DNA from: a virus | Direction: 5' to 3' (one strand) | Virus record (IMG/VR): IMGVR_UViG_3300024348_000110 | Location: 1 to 39,466 of that record | DNA: 39,466 nt | Part shown: positions 25,119-31,734 of the stretch, in pieces | Layout of the letters: every line of letters begins with the position of its first letter | Position numbering within the stretch: the first letter of the stretch is position 1 | Translations under genes and position numbers: made by a program | The notes under the pieces: model-generated | Database searches by the model: none | The model's input: the letters and a program-made list of their open reading frames with translations, nothing else | What the model was told of the DNA's origin: nothing

Positions 25119-28100
25119 ATGAACATAAGAATCAAAGAACTTTTTAAGAGTGATCTAGATCCTAACAGTAATGAATGGTGGTCAAAAGATAAAATTGATA
25201 AAATTAATTTCAATTTTAGATTAATGAAAAACGGAGGGCCGCTTGGTCCTGATGGAATTGAAGGACCAAATGGAGAAGATGGTGATAAAGGTGAAATGGG
25301 TTCACAAGGAACTGAGGGTCTAATTGGACCACAGGGTACAATAGGACCAGAGTCAAGTGGAACTTGGAAATCAAAGGATATAGTATATTTAGACGGTTCT
25401 AAACCAACACAAAAAATAATATACCCTTCTGTTAGTGAAAATGGAACAGTTACATTAGCAGTCGGCGCAACAGCACACCTAGACATTAATGATGAATTAA
25501 TAAGTCCATATTATAGTGAGTTATCGACAGAGCCTATCAGTGCTTCAAAAAGCGGAACATTAAATATTATAACAGAAGCTGCAATAGGTTCACATCCCAA
25601 TGATATTGCTTCTTCTAAAGATTCTATTACACTTGCAGAAGATAAAAATCTTGAAAAATCATACAATATTGGATTAAAAATAGAAGAGGATAACAACATT
25701 GAATTTCCTGTCTTAACATTTAATCCACATAGTTCGGCTGAAAACTTACCGAATAAATTTGCTATAAAATTTGATAGAGATAATAGGTTTTATTTCGATG
25801 GAACCTCACAGAACGTGTTAGGAGCAGCATCTGTAATTCCGTATGAACTTAATGTAGATGCCACTGTACCGGGAAAAGTAATAGAATTTAAAGTAGGAGA
25901 AATTAAGTATTCTAATCACTCTCCAAGTTTAAATAAATTACTAAGATCATACGACACACAGGGAAGAGTTGAATGGGAAGATGTTTTTAACATGTTTTCA
26001 GTATTCCCCGTAGGATCTATAATAAGAATACCTAAAGATGATTTTTTTACAGATCTTAATTTTAATTTATTAGATGCCGAGACAGGGCCAATGGAAATAA
26101 TAGGATCTAACCAAAGTATTAGAACAAATTTTGGATCAGGTAAAACAACAGGACTTTATGGAGGATGGTACCTGTGTAATGGAGAAACATGGGGTGACGG
26201 TGGAATTGTAGAATATGAAACACCTAATCTAAATGGATTTGAATGGAACATTACTAACATACCCGGAATAACATCAGGTTTGTCTGGGATGGTACAGGGT
26301 GGTAGTTTATCATCGTATAACGGGAATATAATTTTTTCAGGAGGAATTAGTACATTAGGTGCGTCTGTATCGGGAGTTACTGCAAATGCTATAGGACATT
26401 CCTTTGATAATAGTATGGACGATATAAGAATATATGACGATGAAAATATTCTGTTTGCCGAGGATAAACATGTTATATTGGGAGAGCAAATTAGTATAAT
26501 TTATTTAAAAGAATATGGTTATAAATGGGGTACTTATGATCCTAATACAACATCTTCTAATATACAACTACAATATCATGCAATGACAGGTTCTATAGAT
26601 TCAAATACTGTCGCATCGGGTTCATATACTAACATAGATATTGCAATGCAATACGCAACTACATTAAACCCCGAAACAATACAATGGAATGCAGACGGTG
26701 CTCCAAGCGATGGCGCTCAATTAGACGCTTATTGGAATGATGATAGTAATTTTGCAAGCGGTAATGTAAGATGTTACTTAAACGGACAGGAAATAGCAGA
26801 TGGATGGTTAGCTAGAGAATCTGGTGGACAGGGTGAATGGGGCTATGCAAGAAAATATATTAATGGTGTTGGGATATCTTCAGATGACGCTTTAGAAACA
26901 GAGCCTAAAGAATGCTGGATGATGTATTCTGAAAGTGTAAATGGAGTTGACGGTACGTATTTTAGCATTGGTATTTCTAATAACGGGCTGCTCCCTCCTG
27001 TAACAATGACAGAGGCGGATGTAACCGGGTTTACTGGATGGCCAGCCGGTACTTCTTTGGAAAAAGTATTTATTTCTAATAAAATAGACAATCATCCAGA
27101 TGTAGTGGGATCTTCTAGCGATTTTAAAGATTATGAAAATACTTCACATATATGGAAACGTAATGATGGAAATAATACCATAGATCAATTAACTGATGGT
27201 TGGTATAGGAGTTTACCAAATACGGATGCGTATCTGGTTAATTTTGGCTTCGGTGGTACGTTAACAGTAGATTCTGGATTATATATGGCATGGAGAAAAT
27301 ATTGGTCAGCAAATGATAATGAATTTAAAGGAGATGTTATAAAATCTAGATTTGTACAATACTCAGTTGGAGACCTTTCTCTTGGAATAGGTGCTTCCAC
27401 TGCATGTGATGCAACTTCAGGTAATGATATTTTTTATTCTTCTGATATGTTTGAAATAGGAGAAAACCCTGGATCATGGCAGGTAACGAATTTGGGCGTA
27501 TATGATGGCCTTAATTCTCCCCAAGGAAGTGATGGCAGGCTTTATTCATGGTTGTCAAACCAGATATACGTAAGACAAGATGCTGCTTCAAATACAAATG
27601 GAGGCTCAATGACTAATCTTGGAAAATATCCACTTATATTGGTAAAATCAGATACATTTATTCCCGGAACAAATAACTCATTAAAGATAGCCGACTGGAC
27701 TGGAGACTCTGGTACATCAGGATATACGGGTGAACGTTATAAAAGTATTGATTCAACTAGTAAGGCAACTGCACCTAATGCAACGGCATGTCCGGGAGGA
27801 AATTCATCTGGTGTCACGTTCGATTGGGATGACGGAAATAACAATAATACACTTAGTTATTTTGGTAGTGGCGGTAGTGGAAATGTTTATTTTACGCTCA
27901 GTGGCATATCTCCATCCCAGCTTAGTGCTTCTAATTTTAGTATAGAGAATCCTGTTGGAACCCAAAATACTGCTAGTGTATCTTTCACCCCAGGAAACTA
28001 TTATGTATCATTAAATATCATTACACCAATACAAGAGGACTCTGAAATATTAGACTTAGATTTTACTTATAGCGGTATGCTAAGTCAAAGCAGCGATATT

Positions 28101-28607
28101 ACTATAGGAATTTCCATTGATCCATGTCACGTTGAAGGTACTGTAATTAGTATGGCAAATGGAACTACTAAATTAGTTGAAAACTTAAAAGTAGGAGATG
28201 TATTAGATTCGTTTGACATAAAAGGATTAAGCGATAGTGGTGAATGGAGAAATTTTAAAACTAATGCGATGGAATTCAGGGCTCCTAGGTCATCTGCTAA
28301 AATAGTCAGAATAATAAAAGGAACTTATAAGAACTATCAAGATATTAATAACGGATTAACTAAAATAACAAACGAACACCCTATATTAATAAAAAGACCA
28401 GATGGAGAAATATTCTTTAAACAGGCTCTCTATATTGATACGACCGACATGATATATGTTAATGAAAAATGGACAAGAGTTAGCTCTAATAAAACTATTC
28501 ACGAAACGGTTAACACATATTCTATTGATGTTGAAAATGAAGATGTTTATATTGCAGACGGTATTTTATGCCATAACGTTGAAAATATAGAGGAAAAGAT
28601 ACAGTAA
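25119..28607 (+). CDS. Collagen-like tail fibre with phage collar domain and C-terminal Hint (intein-like) domain
   Basis: A 1162-residue fibre. Residues 22-36 carry the KIDKINFNFRLM docking helix. Residues about 39-77 are Gly-X-Y collagen repeats (GPLGPDGIEGP and on). Residues about 294-372 are a phage collar domain (FPVGSIIRIPKDD to GGWYLCNGETWGD and PNLNGF), as in T4 gp12. A long beta-rich, Trp/Gly/Ser-rich receptor-type region follows. Residues 1003-1153 form a Hint domain: Cys1003 in a CHVEGTVISMANG block with VENLKVGDVL, block-B Thr1084-Asn-Glu-His1087-Pro, and a closing DVYIADGILCHN ending His1152-Asn1153. All catalytic positions of an intein-like autoprocessing domain are present. The residue after Asn is Val1154, not Cys/Ser/Thr, and only nine residues follow. 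Cleavage or ligation at the tip, not splicing, is therefore more likely. No endonuclease is inserted. Confidence 0.88.
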   Translation: MNIRIKELFKSDLDPNSNEWWSKDKIDKINFNFRLMKNGGPLGPDGIEGPNGEDGDKGEMGSQGTEGLIGPQGTIGPESSGTWKSKDIVYLDGSKPTQKIIYPSVSENGTVTLAVGATAHLDINDELISPYYSELSTEPISASKSGTLNIITEAAIGSHPNDIASSKDSITLAEDKNLEKSYNIGLKIEEDNNIEFPVLTFNPHSSAENLPNKFAIKFDRDNRFYFDGTSQNVLGAASVIPYELNVDATVPGKVIEFKVGEIKYSNHSPSLNKLLRSYDTQGRVEWEDVFNMFSVFPVGSIIRIPKDDFFTDLNFNLLDAETGPMEIIGSNQSIRTNFGSGKTTGLYGGWYLCNGETWGDGGIVEYETPNLNGFEWNITNIPGITSGLSGMVQGGSLSSYNGNIIFSGGISTLGASVSGVTANAIGHSFDNSMDDIRIYDDENILFAEDKHVILGEQISIIYLKEYGYKWGTYDPNTTSSNIQLQYHAMTGSIDSNTVASGSYTNIDIAMQYATTLNPETIQWNADGAPSDGAQLDAYWNDDSNFASGNVRCYLNGQEIADGWLARESGGQGEWGYARKYINGVGISSDDALETEPKECWMMYSESVNGVDGTYFSIGISNNGLLPPVTMTEADVTGFTGWPAGTSLEKVFISNKIDNHPDVVGSSSDFKDYENTSHIWKRNDGNNTIDQLTDGWYRSLPNTDAYLVNFGFGGTLTVDSGLYMAWRKYWSANDNEFKGDVIKSRFVQYSVGDLSLGIGASTACDATSGNDIFYSSDMFEIGENPGSWQVTNLGVYDGLNSPQGSDGRLYSWLSNQIYVRQDAASNTNGGSMTNLGKYPLILVKSDTFIPGTNNSLKIADWTGDSGTSGYTGERYKSIDSTSKATAPNATACPGGNSSGVTFDWDDGNNNNTLSYFGSGGSGNVYFTLSGISPSQLSASNFSIENPVGTQNTASVSFTPGNYYVSLNIITPIQEDSEILDLDFTYSGMLSQSSDITIGISIDPCHVEGTVISMANGTTKLVENLKVGDVLDSFDIKGLSDSGEWRNFKTNAMEFRAPRSSAKIVRIIKGTYKNYQDINNGLTKITNEHPILIKRPDGEIFFKQALYIDTTDMIYVNEKWTRVSSNKTIHETVNTYSIDVENEDVYIADGILCHNVENIEEKIQ

Positions 28608-28659: not shown

Positions 28660-31600
28660 ATGCCAATACCTATTAATTTAAAGCAGATTCTACAATCTGA
28701 TACACAACAGGAAAAACTGGATAAAGTTAATTATAACTTTGACCAGTTAGTTGCTAATGGCGGTGGACCAATGGGAGCCATCGGTTCTATTGGTGAAACA
28801 GGATTTCAGGGTGCAACTGGTGACGATGGTCCTCAGGGTATTGACGGTCCTCAGGGTTTTCAAGGACCTGCCGACGCTTCTAATAATTCAAAATGGATAG
28901 ATGGTGCTCGATGGGTTAGTGGTGCACTTAATATTAAAACTATAGTACCTGAACATTTATTAGATAATCCTGCATCTTTTTCGAATTTCCCTCCTACTAA
29001 TGTATTGTTAGGTTATGCAAATAACGATGATGAATATGATGACCCATCTATAATATCACCATATTTAAATAGCGTTTTATTAATTAATAAGAATTCAAAT
29101 TATCATGATTCTAATATTAGATTAATATCTGAAAAAGGAACAGATAAGTATTTAGATATAGCATTGACTAATTATACTTCTTTAAATTCAATTGGTGAAC
29201 AATCTGTTCTTGAATTTAAATTTGCATCTAGTGTATCAGGTGGAGAATATAGATGGAACGCAGATACGTACATAATCAATGACGCTAATGATAACGAGAT
29301 GATGTCAATGGACGCTGTTGATGGTGTAAAATTTACAGGATCATTTCTTTCCACTAACGATGCAATATTTACGGGTAGTATTTTTAAAATTAATAACTCT
29401 TCCACGGGTGGAACAACTAACACTAACCCAGATGTAGATAAGATTGCGGTGGCATTAGACGATACTGGAACGATAGGTTTTAAGGAAGCATCTGAAATAG
29501 GTGCAAGTGTTCCTATAGGAACAATAATATCTTTTCATTATGATACATATATTGATATTAGCAATTTCACACAAACTCAAGCAATAGATGCAACTGTTGA
29601 TCCAGAACAAATAGATATAGTAGTCGGAAGAGGAATCGCAAATACACAATATGAGGGATGGTATTTATGTAATGGCCAAACTTGGAAAAATAACGACATA
29701 CAGTATACGGTTCCTAACTTAAATTCATTTTCATTTGATTTTACATCGGGAGGAATTCAAATAATATCTGCACCAGGTGCAAATACTCCTAATTTATTAG
29801 GAGGAGGTGAATTTGAATTTCAACAAAATGCAAATACCATTAGCTATACTATAGATGTTAATTCAACAGAAGCATGGGTAACACAGGCTCAAGCTAATTA
29901 TGCATCTACTGAATATAAGGTGGTCAAAACTCCTCAATTAATATATTTAGGTGCGACGGATTTATGGTATAATGTTTCTGCTCCGCCACCCGTACCAGCT
30001 TCTTTTCAAATTGACCCTATAATAGACAGCGGTATTACAATTCAACAGGATTTAACTCAACTTGGTTCTTATAGAGGTAGAATTTCTTCATACGGAATCA
30101 ACGGTGATAATGGCTCTGTTTTTTACACCAACCCTTCTATAGATTTAGAATACAATAAGCCAGCGCTAATATATGTTAAAGTAACTGGTAAATCATACAT
30201 TGCTCCTCCTTCTAACAACTTACAGTTATCGGAACCCACTACTTCAAAATATAGTTGGTTTGTTAATTGGAATGAGAGAATGTATTTCGATAATAGTGCA
30301 CCTAATAATTTTAGTACTGAAACATGGAATGATAGAGGAGACTATAACCCTAACGCAACATACAACCAGGGAGACGTGTTCTTCCTATCAGGTGCAGGTG
30401 GAGGCGGCCAATGGTATACTCTAGCTAAAGGTCTTTCTTCATGGAATGAGGCACAGGCGCAAAATTTAAGTAGTAGCTTTTCCCCTGAAAATGCATGTGT
30501 AAATTCTTCATGGAACAGGTTTGATCCAGTTGAAGGTGCTTATTTCTATAAACTTCCATGGGTTAACCAGCACAACGACAATAATACGCCTCATTCATAT
30601 AATGAAGGCGATGGATTTAATAATGTATGGAAGCCTAGCGTACTGGATCCAGGTTTTAATCTTCCCGGACAGGATGATATGATGAACATGAATCTAGAAG
30701 GTTCATATCAACCAGGAACCACTAATTCTATAGGTTACTCTCTTAGTAATGCATTTTATGATAGCGAAACTAATACTCATATATTTCCTCCAAATAGAAC
30801 AATTAATACGAACGAATCATTAGCTTCCTGGAATGGAGCTTTCACCCAACCTATGCAGGTATTATTAGAACCTGAAGGCAATGGTACTACTGGAGAAACA
30901 TACGAAGTTATACCTGTTGTAAATTCATATAATATTAGTGAAATACAGGCTCTATATCCCCAGTTGAACGTGACAAATAGCCATTTAGTACAATATACGG
31001 ATCCTCATGGATATACTGATACTAATCAATATTGGGATGAAACCAACTATTTAGATTATGACAGAGATACGTTTGGCAGCAGCGTTAAAAAGCATTTAAA
31101 CGGAAACTATACAATTGATTCTGGCAACAACCCTACAGCATATAATTCTGTTCATTCATGGAGACCTAATCAGCTTGACACGGATTTCAGAAGATATAAA
31201 TCAGTAATAATGACAGTTTTATTAGAACCTGATGCCGTTAATAAAATATTAGATAATGGATCTACTATAAAATTAGGACTAGCTCATTGGGAAGATTCTT
31301 TAGCTTATGGACCGATACCATTTATTCCTTCTAACTTCCAACCACTTGGGTCTAATAATGTAATTGAAGCATATAATAATCCATGGGGAGAACTACTTCT
31401 CCCAGATAGCTTAACTACAACTTTAGGAAATGGTGCTGATTTTGTAGTAAGTGATTATATAGGTGGAGCAGGAACGGGTTCCGACACGGTACCATATAAT
31501 GTATACCCTAATGATACAGCACCGAATGTTGTGGCGGGTCCATGGGCATGGTTGTTTACGATTACCGTAGGTGCCCCTGATTCTAATGGAGATGGAATTA

Positions 31601-31734
31601 TTACTATACAGAGTATTATGCCATGTGGCCAGGGTAATCAGTTAAGTACTCCAATCAGCTTTACAATAGCCCATCCGGATGATTCTACTATAGAAGTACA
31701 ATACGATGGATATTACAATAAGGCACAATGTTAA
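28660..31734 (+). CDS. Collagen-like tail fibre with phage collar domain (paralogue, no Hint domain)
   Basis: A 1024-residue fibre with the same plan as its upstream neighbour. It has a docking helix EKLDKVNYNFDQLVANGG (residues 18-35) and Gly-X-Y repeats to about residue 70. A collar domain spans about 283-350 (VPIGTIISFHYD, then EGWYLCNGQTWKNND and VPNLNSF). A long beta-rich, aromatic C-terminal region probably binds the receptor. Beyond the first 70 residues and the collar the two fibres have diverged, as expected for host-range proteins. This one ends in KAQC with no Hint domain. In T4, gp12 short fibres carry the collar fold and bind the cell irreversibly. Two such genes side by side suggest either a mixed fibre set or alternative receptors. 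Its stop is 6 bases before the next ATG. Confidence 0.85.
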   Translation: MPIPINLKQILQSDTQQEKLDKVNYNFDQLVANGGGPMGAIGSIGETGFQGATGDDGPQGIDGPQGFQGPADASNNSKWIDGARWVSGALNIKTIVPEHLLDNPASFSNFPPTNVLLGYANNDDEYDDPSIISPYLNSVLLINKNSNYHDSNIRLISEKGTDKYLDIALTNYTSLNSIGEQSVLEFKFASSVSGGEYRWNADTYIINDANDNEMMSMDAVDGVKFTGSFLSTNDAIFTGSIFKINNSSTGGTTNTNPDVDKIAVALDDTGTIGFKEASEIGASVPIGTIISFHYDTYIDISNFTQTQAIDATVDPEQIDIVVGRGIANTQYEGWYLCNGQTWKNNDIQYTVPNLNSFSFDFTSGGIQIISAPGANTPNLLGGGEFEFQQNANTISYTIDVNSTEAWVTQAQANYASTEYKVVKTPQLIYLGATDLWYNVSAPPPVPASFQIDPIIDSGITIQQDLTQLGSYRGRISSYGINGDNGSVFYTNPSIDLEYNKPALIYVKVTGKSYIAPPSNNLQLSEPTTSKYSWFVNWNERMYFDNSAPNNFSTETWNDRGDYNPNATYNQGDVFFLSGAGGGGQWYTLAKGLSSWNEAQAQNLSSSFSPENACVNSSWNRFDPVEGAYFYKLPWVNQHNDNNTPHSYNEGDGFNNVWKPSVLDPGFNLPGQDDMMNMNLEGSYQPGTTNSIGYSLSNAFYDSETNTHIFPPNRTINTNESLASWNGAFTQPMQVLLEPEGNGTTGETYEVIPVVNSYNISEIQALYPQLNVTNSHLVQYTDPHGYTDTNQYWDETNYLDYDRDTFGSSVKKHLNGNYTIDSGNNPTAYNSVHSWRPNQLDTDFRRYKSVIMTVLLEPDAVNKILDNGSTIKLGLAHWEDSLAYGPIPFIPSNFQPLGSNNVIEAYNNPWGELLLPDSLTTTLGNGADFVVSDYIGGAGTGSDTVPYNVYPNDTAPNVVAGPWAWLFTITVGAPDSNGDGIITIQSIMPCGQGNQLSTPISFTIAHPDDSTIEVQYDGYYNKAQC

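What the first reader, a model, noticed from the sequence alone, without database searches (positions are those of the whole stretch)
28125..28607. Complete Hint (intein-like) domain at the tip of a tail fibre
Residues 1003-1153 of the first collar fibre carry Cys1003, the T-x-x-H block B (Thr1084, His1087) and the terminal His1152-Asn1153, with VENLKVGDVL and DVYIADGILCHN blocks. No endonuclease is inserted and the +1 residue is Val, so classical splicing is unlikely. The domain sits at the receptor-facing C-terminus with nine residues after it. It may cleave itself off after trimer folding (maturation), leave a reactive thioester that couples the fibre to another molecule or to the cell surface, or diversify the tip. 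The neighbouring paralogous fibre lacks it.
Basis: partly seen in the sequence, partly recalled or inferred. Interest (0 to 1): 0.8.

Follow-up and report, generated by a model that had tools for sequence, protein, structure and literature searches.

The report
Self-cutting intein-like cap on phage fibre
A phage fibre ends in a conserved intein-like domain that sits just behind a rapidly changing tip and probably cuts itself off; similar caps end proteins of unrelated giant phages, and what they do appears to be untested.

Summary
ORF 25119-28607 (1162 aa, collagen-like fibre) ends in a 151-residue Hint domain (Cys1003, Thr1084/His1087, His1152-Asn1153) plus nine residues. The model has the Hint fold. 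[quoted passage not shown] by structural Z they are tied with a mini-intein and nearly so with hedgehog. Type-A BIL features readable from sequence are met. New facts: (1) Hint domains followed by 2-10 residues also close proteins of jumbo phages (NCTB, Alexandravirus, Rivsvirus, Yersinia fHe-Yen9-02, LR756508), several annotated as virion or tail proteins. (2) In this fibre family the ~100 residues before Cys1003 vary strongly while the Hint is conserved; the change-over lies at about the cleavage site. (3) Two orthologous fibre types lack the Hint and end differently. (4) The block-F His of BILs is Asp here, and residue -1 is Pro in the five distinct fibres compared. Best reading: a removable, constant C-terminal cap behind an exchangeable tip, using type-A BIL chemistry. 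Activity is inferred, not shown; covalent coupling of the tip is not excluded. 'Collar' has no support. Ten literature searches showed me no report of such a cap.

The parts
25119..28607 (+). Fibre gene, 1162 aa: collagen-like N-terminal part, variable tip, C-terminal Hint
   Evidence: PHROG tail fibre families and Pfam Collagen (below its cut-off) over residues 40-77
25236..25349 (+). Collagen-like Gly-X-Y stretch, residues 40-77
27810..28115 (+). Hypervariable tip, residues 898-999, exchanged between relatives
28122..28124 (+). Pro1002, residue -1, the same in the five distinct Hint-bearing fibres compared
28125..28577 (+). Hint (type-A BIL-like) domain, residues 1003-1153
28125..28127 (+). 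Cys1003, Hint residue 1, expected nucleophile of the N-S acyl shift
   Evidence: 22 of 22 sequences of A2; alignments to inteins start at model residue 15 (Cys1003) and intein residue 1
28368..28379 (+). Block B, Thr1084-x-Glu-His1087
   Evidence: T, E, H and the following P invariant in 22 of 22; T and H absent from the LR756508 Hint
28542..28544 (+). Asp1142, in the place of the block-F His of BIL domains
   Evidence: invariant in the 8 sequences of A1 and the 22 of A2; aligned to His of 2lwy and 6y75
28572..28577 (+). His1152-Asn1153, block G, expected Asn cyclisation
   Evidence: invariant
28578..28604 (+). C-terminal tail VENIEEKIQ, 9 aa
   Evidence: tails of 2-10 aa in the terminal relatives
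28660..31734 (+). Neighbouring paralogous fibre, 1024 aa, no Hint found

Best explanation
Residues 1003-1153 are a type-A BIL-like Hint domain used as a removable C-terminal cap of the fibre. Proposed order: the fibre is made with its tip followed by the Hint; the Hint folds; Cys1003 attacks the Pro1002 carbonyl (N-S acyl shift) and Asn1153 cyclises; hydrolysis or aminolysis of the thioester frees the fibre, which then ends at the variable tip (about residue 1002). The nine-residue tail is lost, or, as in type-A BIL splicing, may be joined to the tip. The cap is a constant module behind an exchangeable tip, so tips can be swapped while the same cap is always removed. Shown: domain, predicted fold, intact catalytic residues, position, conservation against variability. 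Inferred: that it reacts, in which order, and that the mature virion lacks it.
For: Fold: Foldseek ranks 1-5 are BIL structures (E 5e-8 to 3e-7). VIA-align Z 14.9 (rmsd 2.4, 137 residues) to BIL2 of Tetrahymena, 14.0 to a RecA mini-intein, 13.8 to the C. thermocellum BIL, 13.7 to hedgehog: ties or near ties, so structure alone does not separate the classes. Sequence profile A2: 2lwy BIL E 8.8e-11, 6y75 BIL2 1.3e-9, best true intein 9.1e-6. Cys1, T-x-E-H-P and HN invariant in 22 of 22 sequences of A2; A2 is the window, 2 of the 16 loci, 9 of the 11 and 10 of the 14, left-out loci not checked there. Purifying selection on the Hint: NG86 dN/dS 0.07-0.34 in ten pairs of five fibres. HN is kept although only 2-10 residues follow: 26 terminal rows with 15 distinct tails (rows include near-copies; the one virion-type row without HN, L091, is cut by the end of its stretch), which suggests that the C-terminal reaction matters. 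Hint against tip identity: 97/75% (window-L060), 93/45% (window-L084), 91/39% (L077-L078), 61/22% (window-L077). In L077-L078 nucleotide identity goes from 49% to 97% between neighbouring 25-codon blocks at the junction. +1 is V, I or Q here, and A, K, T or V in other phages.
Against: No activity data. Pro at -1 is, as I recall from intein vector practice (not from a call), unfavourable for N-terminal cleavage. The block-F His is Asp. A Hint without block-B Thr/His (LR756508) and one without a clear Cys1 (NCTB_135) exist, so some relatives may be inactive or C-cleaving only. The related Hint of loci L026-L036 is internal, with 100 or 104 residues after it (11 of 11 loci), so a terminal cap is not the only use. 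Two orthologous fibre types do without it. Nothing shows that the cap aids folding. His-Asn could also be kept for structure.
Confidence: 0.5

Rival explanations
1. Coupling device: the Hint forms a thioester at the tip (Pro1002) and hands the fibre C-terminus to an amine (Lys) on another fibre chain, a virion protein or the cell surface, making an isopeptide bond.
For: The top structural match, Tetrahymena BIL2, is reported to make Lys isopeptide bonds and to conjugate its N-terminal ubiquitin-like domain to other proteins without ATP (PMC8616854, passages). Each of the eight tails compared contains a Lys; the product of control fractions is 6e-4, but the count was made post hoc and the tails are not independent.
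Against: No acceptor identified. Lys is common at the C-termini of control genes (last nine residues: 16 of 25 window genes, 6 of 15 neighbours in jumbo phages). In type-A BILs cleavage products dominate (PMC4031507, passages).
Confidence: 0.18
2. Mainly a recombination anchor: a constant 3' module that lets tips be exchanged by homologous recombination, kept for that reason, whatever its chemistry.
For: Border of variability at the Hint. In window-L060 dS of the Hint segment is 0.042 against 0.29-0.46 in the five other fibre segments, 0.27 in the upstream gene and 0.32 in the downstream paralogue, so the Hint stretch itself was probably exchanged.
Against: The dS drop is about twofold in window-L084 and L060-L084 and absent in L077-L078 and window-L077. 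It does not explain invariant catalytic residues across phages with different carrier proteins.
Confidence: 0.12
3. A permanent structural or receptor-binding end domain; cleavage is slow or absent in nature.
For: Pro at -1 and the block-F Asp may slow the reactions (inference).
Against: The Hint is far less variable than the residues before it, unlike a receptor-binding part; catalytic residues are invariant in 22 of 22.
Confidence: 0.12
4. A decayed intein or BIL remnant without function.
For: No endonuclease, no +1 nucleophile; Pfam scores below cut-off.
Against: dN/dS below 0.35 in all ten pairs (NG86), invariant active-site residues, recurrence in unrelated phages.
Confidence: 0.08

Closest known systems
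Type-A bacterial intein-like (BIL) domains (C. thermocellum BIL, PDB 2lwy; that it is type A is recalled)
   Same: Hint fold, residue-1 Cys, block-B T-x-x-H, terminal His-Asn, no +1 nucleophile, no endonuclease, seat in a hypervariable protein region; best profile match
   Different: Carrier is a phage fibre; the domain closes the protein with nine residues left; block-F His replaced by Asp; Pro at -1 in this family
BIL2 of Tetrahymena thermophila BUBL1 (PDB 6y75, 6tmm)
   Same: Top fold match (tied with a mini-intein by Z)
   Different: Lies between ubiquitin-like domains in a ciliate (PMC9200820, passage); conjugation reported there, nothing shown here
Hedgehog C-terminal autoprocessing (Hog) domain (PDB 1at0)
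   Same: C-terminal Hint placed behind the part to be released; fold (Z 13.7)
   Different: Here His-Asn is kept (its lack in Hog is recalled) and no sterol-recognition region can follow, only nine residues
Mini-inteins (e.g. helicase inteins of Vibrio phages, L019, L024)
   Same: Fold and catalytic blocks
   Different: Those sit inside a helicase with Cys at +1 and 407 residues behind them
Peptidase S74 autoprocessing domain of tail fibres
   Same: Self-detaching domain of fibre proteins (S74 as described in PMC7824862, passage; its usual C-terminal position is recalled)
   Different: Different chemistry (conserved Ser and Lys in S74); no S74 match in Pfam at E 1; no evidence that the Hint aids folding
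PHROG_38766 virion structural protein (presumably the Alexandravirus gp112 type; membership not tested)
   Same: Virion protein profile whose C-terminal part matches this Hint; gp112 and relatives are collagen-like by eye with the same C-terminal Hint
   Different: 481 aa rather than 1162; Gly at -1; tail TDIVAKAEKT or similar

Membership tests
Type-A BIL domain | Hint fold | tested here: met
   AlphaFold2 model, pLDDT 79.5, Z 14.9 to BIL2, 13.7-14.0 to intein and hedgehog
Type-A BIL domain | Residue-1 Cys/Ser and block-B Thr-x-x-His | tested here: met
   Cys1003, Thr1084, His1087; invariant in 22 of 22
Type-A BIL domain | C-terminal His-Asn | tested here: met
   His1152-Asn1153; criterion in PMC4031507 and PMC7765530
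Type-A BIL domain | No nucleophile at +1 | tested here: met
   Val1154; V, I, Q in the family. Alexandravirus relatives have Thr
Type-A BIL domain | Seat in a hypervariable region of a non-conserved protein | tested here: met
   criterion as given in PMC7765530 (passage)
Type-A BIL domain | Sequence closer to BILs than to other Hint classes | tested here: inconclusive
   Profile A2 against PDB chains: BIL 8.8e-11, best intein 9.1e-6; only solved structures were compared and no tree of Hint classes was built
Type-A BIL domain | Block-F His (usual in the BILs and inteins seen; not named as defining in the passages I saw) | tested here: not met
   Asp in its place in 8 of 8 (A1) and 22 of 22 (A2); hence 'type-A BIL-like'
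Type-A BIL domain | Autocleavage or splicing | not testable with these tools
   needs protein
Classical intein | +1 Cys/Ser/Thr and insertion in a conserved host protein | tested here: not met
   +1 Val, terminal position, variable host region
Hedgehog Hog domain | Sterol-recognition region after the Hint | tested here: not met
   only nine residues follow
S74 peptidase / intramolecular chaperone | S74 domain | tested here: not met
   no such Pfam match at E 1

The most novel reading that the evidence does not exclude
The cap is a coupling enzyme: it turns the end of a variable fibre tip into a slow-reacting (prolyl) thioester and joins it to a lysine, so that phage fibres are covalently cross-linked in the virion or bonded to the host surface. 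This would be ATP-free, BIL-driven protein conjugation in a virus, shared by unrelated jumbo phages.
Probability: 0.15. Interest if true: 0.88.

Novelty: new variant of a known kind. Interest (0 to 1): 0.58.

Why it matters
BIL domains were described in 2003 (reference in PMC7765530) and have test-tube activities but, as far as I know, no settled biological role in bacteria or phages. Here one is fixed at the end of a phage fibre, just behind the part that varies, and related caps occur in phages that have been isolated. One mass-spectrometry run on virions could say what a BIL does in nature. If it is a removable constant cap, it is a second chemistry, beside S74, for self-removing fibre domains. 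If it couples, phages would have a covalent adhesion or cross-linking step of a kind I found no report of.

Tried and rejected
Tip fold: AlphaFold2 of tip plus Hint with six sequences failed (pLDDT 40.3); nothing is concluded from it.

The alignment scan with A1 returned an error (not conserved enough); single proteins were used instead. The LR756508 Hint found no relative in viral contigs (0 of 5 stretches).

Bacterial genomes: the one scan gave 1 of 19 stretches, a 33-residue match in a Rhodospirillaceae contig (L112); by eye the ORFs listed there show no Hint, so it was taken as chance.

Tip cyclisation through a Cys at the base of the tip: that Cys seems, by eye, to occur also in Hint-less orthologues (L076, L080), so it is not tied to the Hint.

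Link to 'hairy' tails: Y3 and AD1 are called hairy (PMC6143709, passages) and carry the Hint, but the hairy phage CBB is reported to have no Hint (PMC5259590, passage); dropped.

Literature: ten searches; several listings were capped (25 of 51, 20 of 23, 20 of 129, 12 of 30 and 15 of 287). Seen as passages only: PMC3556154, PMC5259590, PMC7824862, PMC5526547, PMC7765530, PMC4031507, PMC8616854, PMC9200820, PMC7412058, PMC6143709, PMC13282480. None of these passages describes a C-terminal Hint on a phage fibre. All other papers were seen as listings only. Database labels do exist: NCTB_136 is annotated 'contains intein domain'.

The rule on Pro at -1 and the low reactivity of prolyl thioesters are recalled; none of the 12 papers listed held the term 'prolyl thioester'.

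Counts left out: one search read 14 of the 28 loci; 3 of the 14 are cut by the contig end; of 11 complete, 7 have and 4 lack the Hint; several are near-copies, so five and two distinct sequences. YN00 dN/dS failed in seven of ten pairs, and one dS value in each of two pairs was undefined.

Full report
What is there. The window is a 39,466-base virus record with genes like those of T4-type myoviruses: baseplate hub and wedge, tail tube, single-strand binding protein, primase, UvsY-like protein. ORF 25119-28607 encodes a 1162-aa fibre with a collagen-like stretch at residues 40-77. Its last 160 residues are a Hint domain, residues 1003-1153, and a nine-residue tail. The gene lies between baseplate-wedge and tail-tube genes; I found nothing that marks it as a collar fibre.

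Is it a Hint? The full-length protein scores weakly in Pfam (Intein_splicing E 0.012, Hint_2 0.069), but PHROG_38766 covers residues 999-1156 (whole-protein E 1.1e-10). The isolated domain passes the cut-off of TIGR01443 intein_Cterm; its Pfam matches stay below their cut-offs. AlphaFold2 with 22 sequences gave pLDDT 79.5 and pTM 0.73. Foldseek's first five matches are BIL structures. VIA-align gives Z 14.9 to Tetrahymena BIL2, 14.0 to a RecA mini-intein, 13.8 to the C. thermocellum BIL and 13.7 to hedgehog; these are ties or near ties, and alignments to several inteins begin at Cys1003 and intein residue 1. By sequence profile the BILs come first by a wide margin (2lwy 8.8e-11, 6y75 1.3e-9, best intein 9.1e-6).

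Which class? Features of type-A BILs as given in two reviews (passages): His-Asn at the end, no +1 nucleophile, seat in hypervariable regions of non-conserved proteins, cleavage more than splicing. The window domain meets what sequence can show. One difference: the His of block F is Asp in 8 of 8 sequences of A1 and 22 of 22 of A2, where 2lwy and 6y75 have His.

Relatives in the same fibre family. A scan of IMG/VR with the Hint gave 16 loci, 90-100% identical; in 16 of 16 the Hint closes an ORF of this fibre, two of them cut at the 5' end. A scan with the fibre's N-terminal 394 residues gave 28 loci. Of 14 read, 11 hold the whole gene: seven with the Hint (five distinct sequences) and four without (two distinct sequences: L076; L080/L081/L086), the latter with a different end (no profile hit). 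A motif scan found 20 contigs with the N-terminal motif of this Hint; I did not read each one. Eight records behind these loci, searched whole, hold one Hint match each; they are mostly near-copies and may be fragments.

Tip against Hint. Identity over the last 100 residues before Cys1 and over the Hint: 75 and 97% (window-L060), 45 and 93% (window-L084), 22 and 61% (window-L077), 39 and 91% (L077-L078). In the last pair the rest of the fibre is 93-95% identical, so the tip alone has changed. In blocks of 25 codons the nucleotide identity of L077-L078 is 49% just before the junction and 97% across it; for window-L084 55% and 92%. Synonymous divergence: for window-L060 the Hint segment has dS 0.042, the other five fibre segments 0.29-0.46, the upstream gene 0.27, the downstream paralogue 0.32, which points to exchange of the Hint stretch; window-L084 and L060-L084 show about a twofold drop; L077-L078 and window-L077 none. 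Some dS values are near saturation or undefined. dN/dS of the Hint is 0.07-0.34 in ten pairs (NG86; YN00 failed for seven pairs).

The same cap elsewhere. tblastn in 50,697 phage records gave 55 records: Erwinia 39, Vibrio 11, Dickeya 2, NCTB, Yersinia, one uncultured. I read eight regions. In six (NCTB, Erwinia SNUABM_22 and SNUABM_5, Dickeya AD1, Yersinia fHe-Yen9-02, LR756508) a Hint closes a protein with 2-10 residues left. Five of these proteins are annotated as virion structural, tail or tail fibre proteins and are collagen-like by eye (NCTB_136 and the four of enterobacterial phages); NCTB_132 ('large intein domain protein') and the LR756508 ORF carry no such label. The other two regions, Vibrio phages, are true inteins inside a helicase with Cys at +1 (two of the eleven Vibrio records read). 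In IMG/VR, 14 of 14 loci found with the SNUABM_22 Hint have it at the end with 9-10 residues left; eleven loci found with the NCTB_132 Hint have it inside a protein of 426-462 aa (one cut at its 5' end), with 100 or 104 residues after it and Lys at +1; by eye I take the last part for a fibronectin-type domain. So a terminal cap is common but not the only place. Over all loci held, my profile printed 26 terminal rows (15 distinct tails) and 10 internal rows, near-copies included; each complete row has His-Asn.

Mechanism. The conserved parts are those needed for the two BIL reactions: Cys1 for the N-S shift, block B for its catalysis, His-Asn for Asn cyclisation. That His-Asn is kept when almost nothing follows suggests that the C-terminal reaction matters, or that His-Asn has a structural role. 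Pro at -1 is the same in the five distinct fibres; from memory, Pro there slows N-terminal cleavage and a prolyl thioester reacts slowly. I therefore propose self-removal, perhaps slow or gated, leaving the variable tip as the end of the fibre, at 0.5. Coupling to an amine is the boldest reading left open: BIL2, the top structural match, is reported to do just that (PMC8616854, passages), and the eight tails compared each carry a Lys, though this was a post hoc count and Lys is common in the controls.

Verdict. A real, intact, conserved BIL-type cap behind an exchangeable fibre tip; a known domain class in an unusual and recurrent setting; function untested. I saw no paper on it in ten searches of an open-access library that lacks most subscription journals.

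Noticed in passing
L018 6480-6941 (Phage NCTB gene 135): Free-standing 154-aa Hint-like protein directly behind a Hint-capped fibre gene; no clear Cys1 or block B, but the terminal His-Asn is kept.
   Followed up: partly
L022 7125-8423 (LR756508): Hint-capped 432-aa protein whose block B reads S-A-S-Q instead of T-x-x-H while Cys1 and the His-Asn-Lys-His end are kept.
   Followed up: partly
L026-L036: Family of viral proteins with an internal Hint, Lys at +1 and 100 or 104 residues after it; a second architecture.
   Followed up: partly
L077 and L078, residues about 850-952: Two fibres 93-95% identical elsewhere carry different tips; a natural tip swap with sharp borders.
   Followed up: yes
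L019 3158-5659 (Vibrio phage 13VV501A helicase): Besides the intein at about residues 286-434 of the open frame there is a second intein-like match near the N-terminus (residues 39-70 of the frame).
   Followed up: no
L020 6477-7610, L018 6941-8083: Behind the Hint-capped collagen-like protein lie two shorter collagen-like proteins with similar-looking N-terminal parts and no Hint (in NCTB with gene 135 between); a heterotrimer is conceivable.
   Followed up: no
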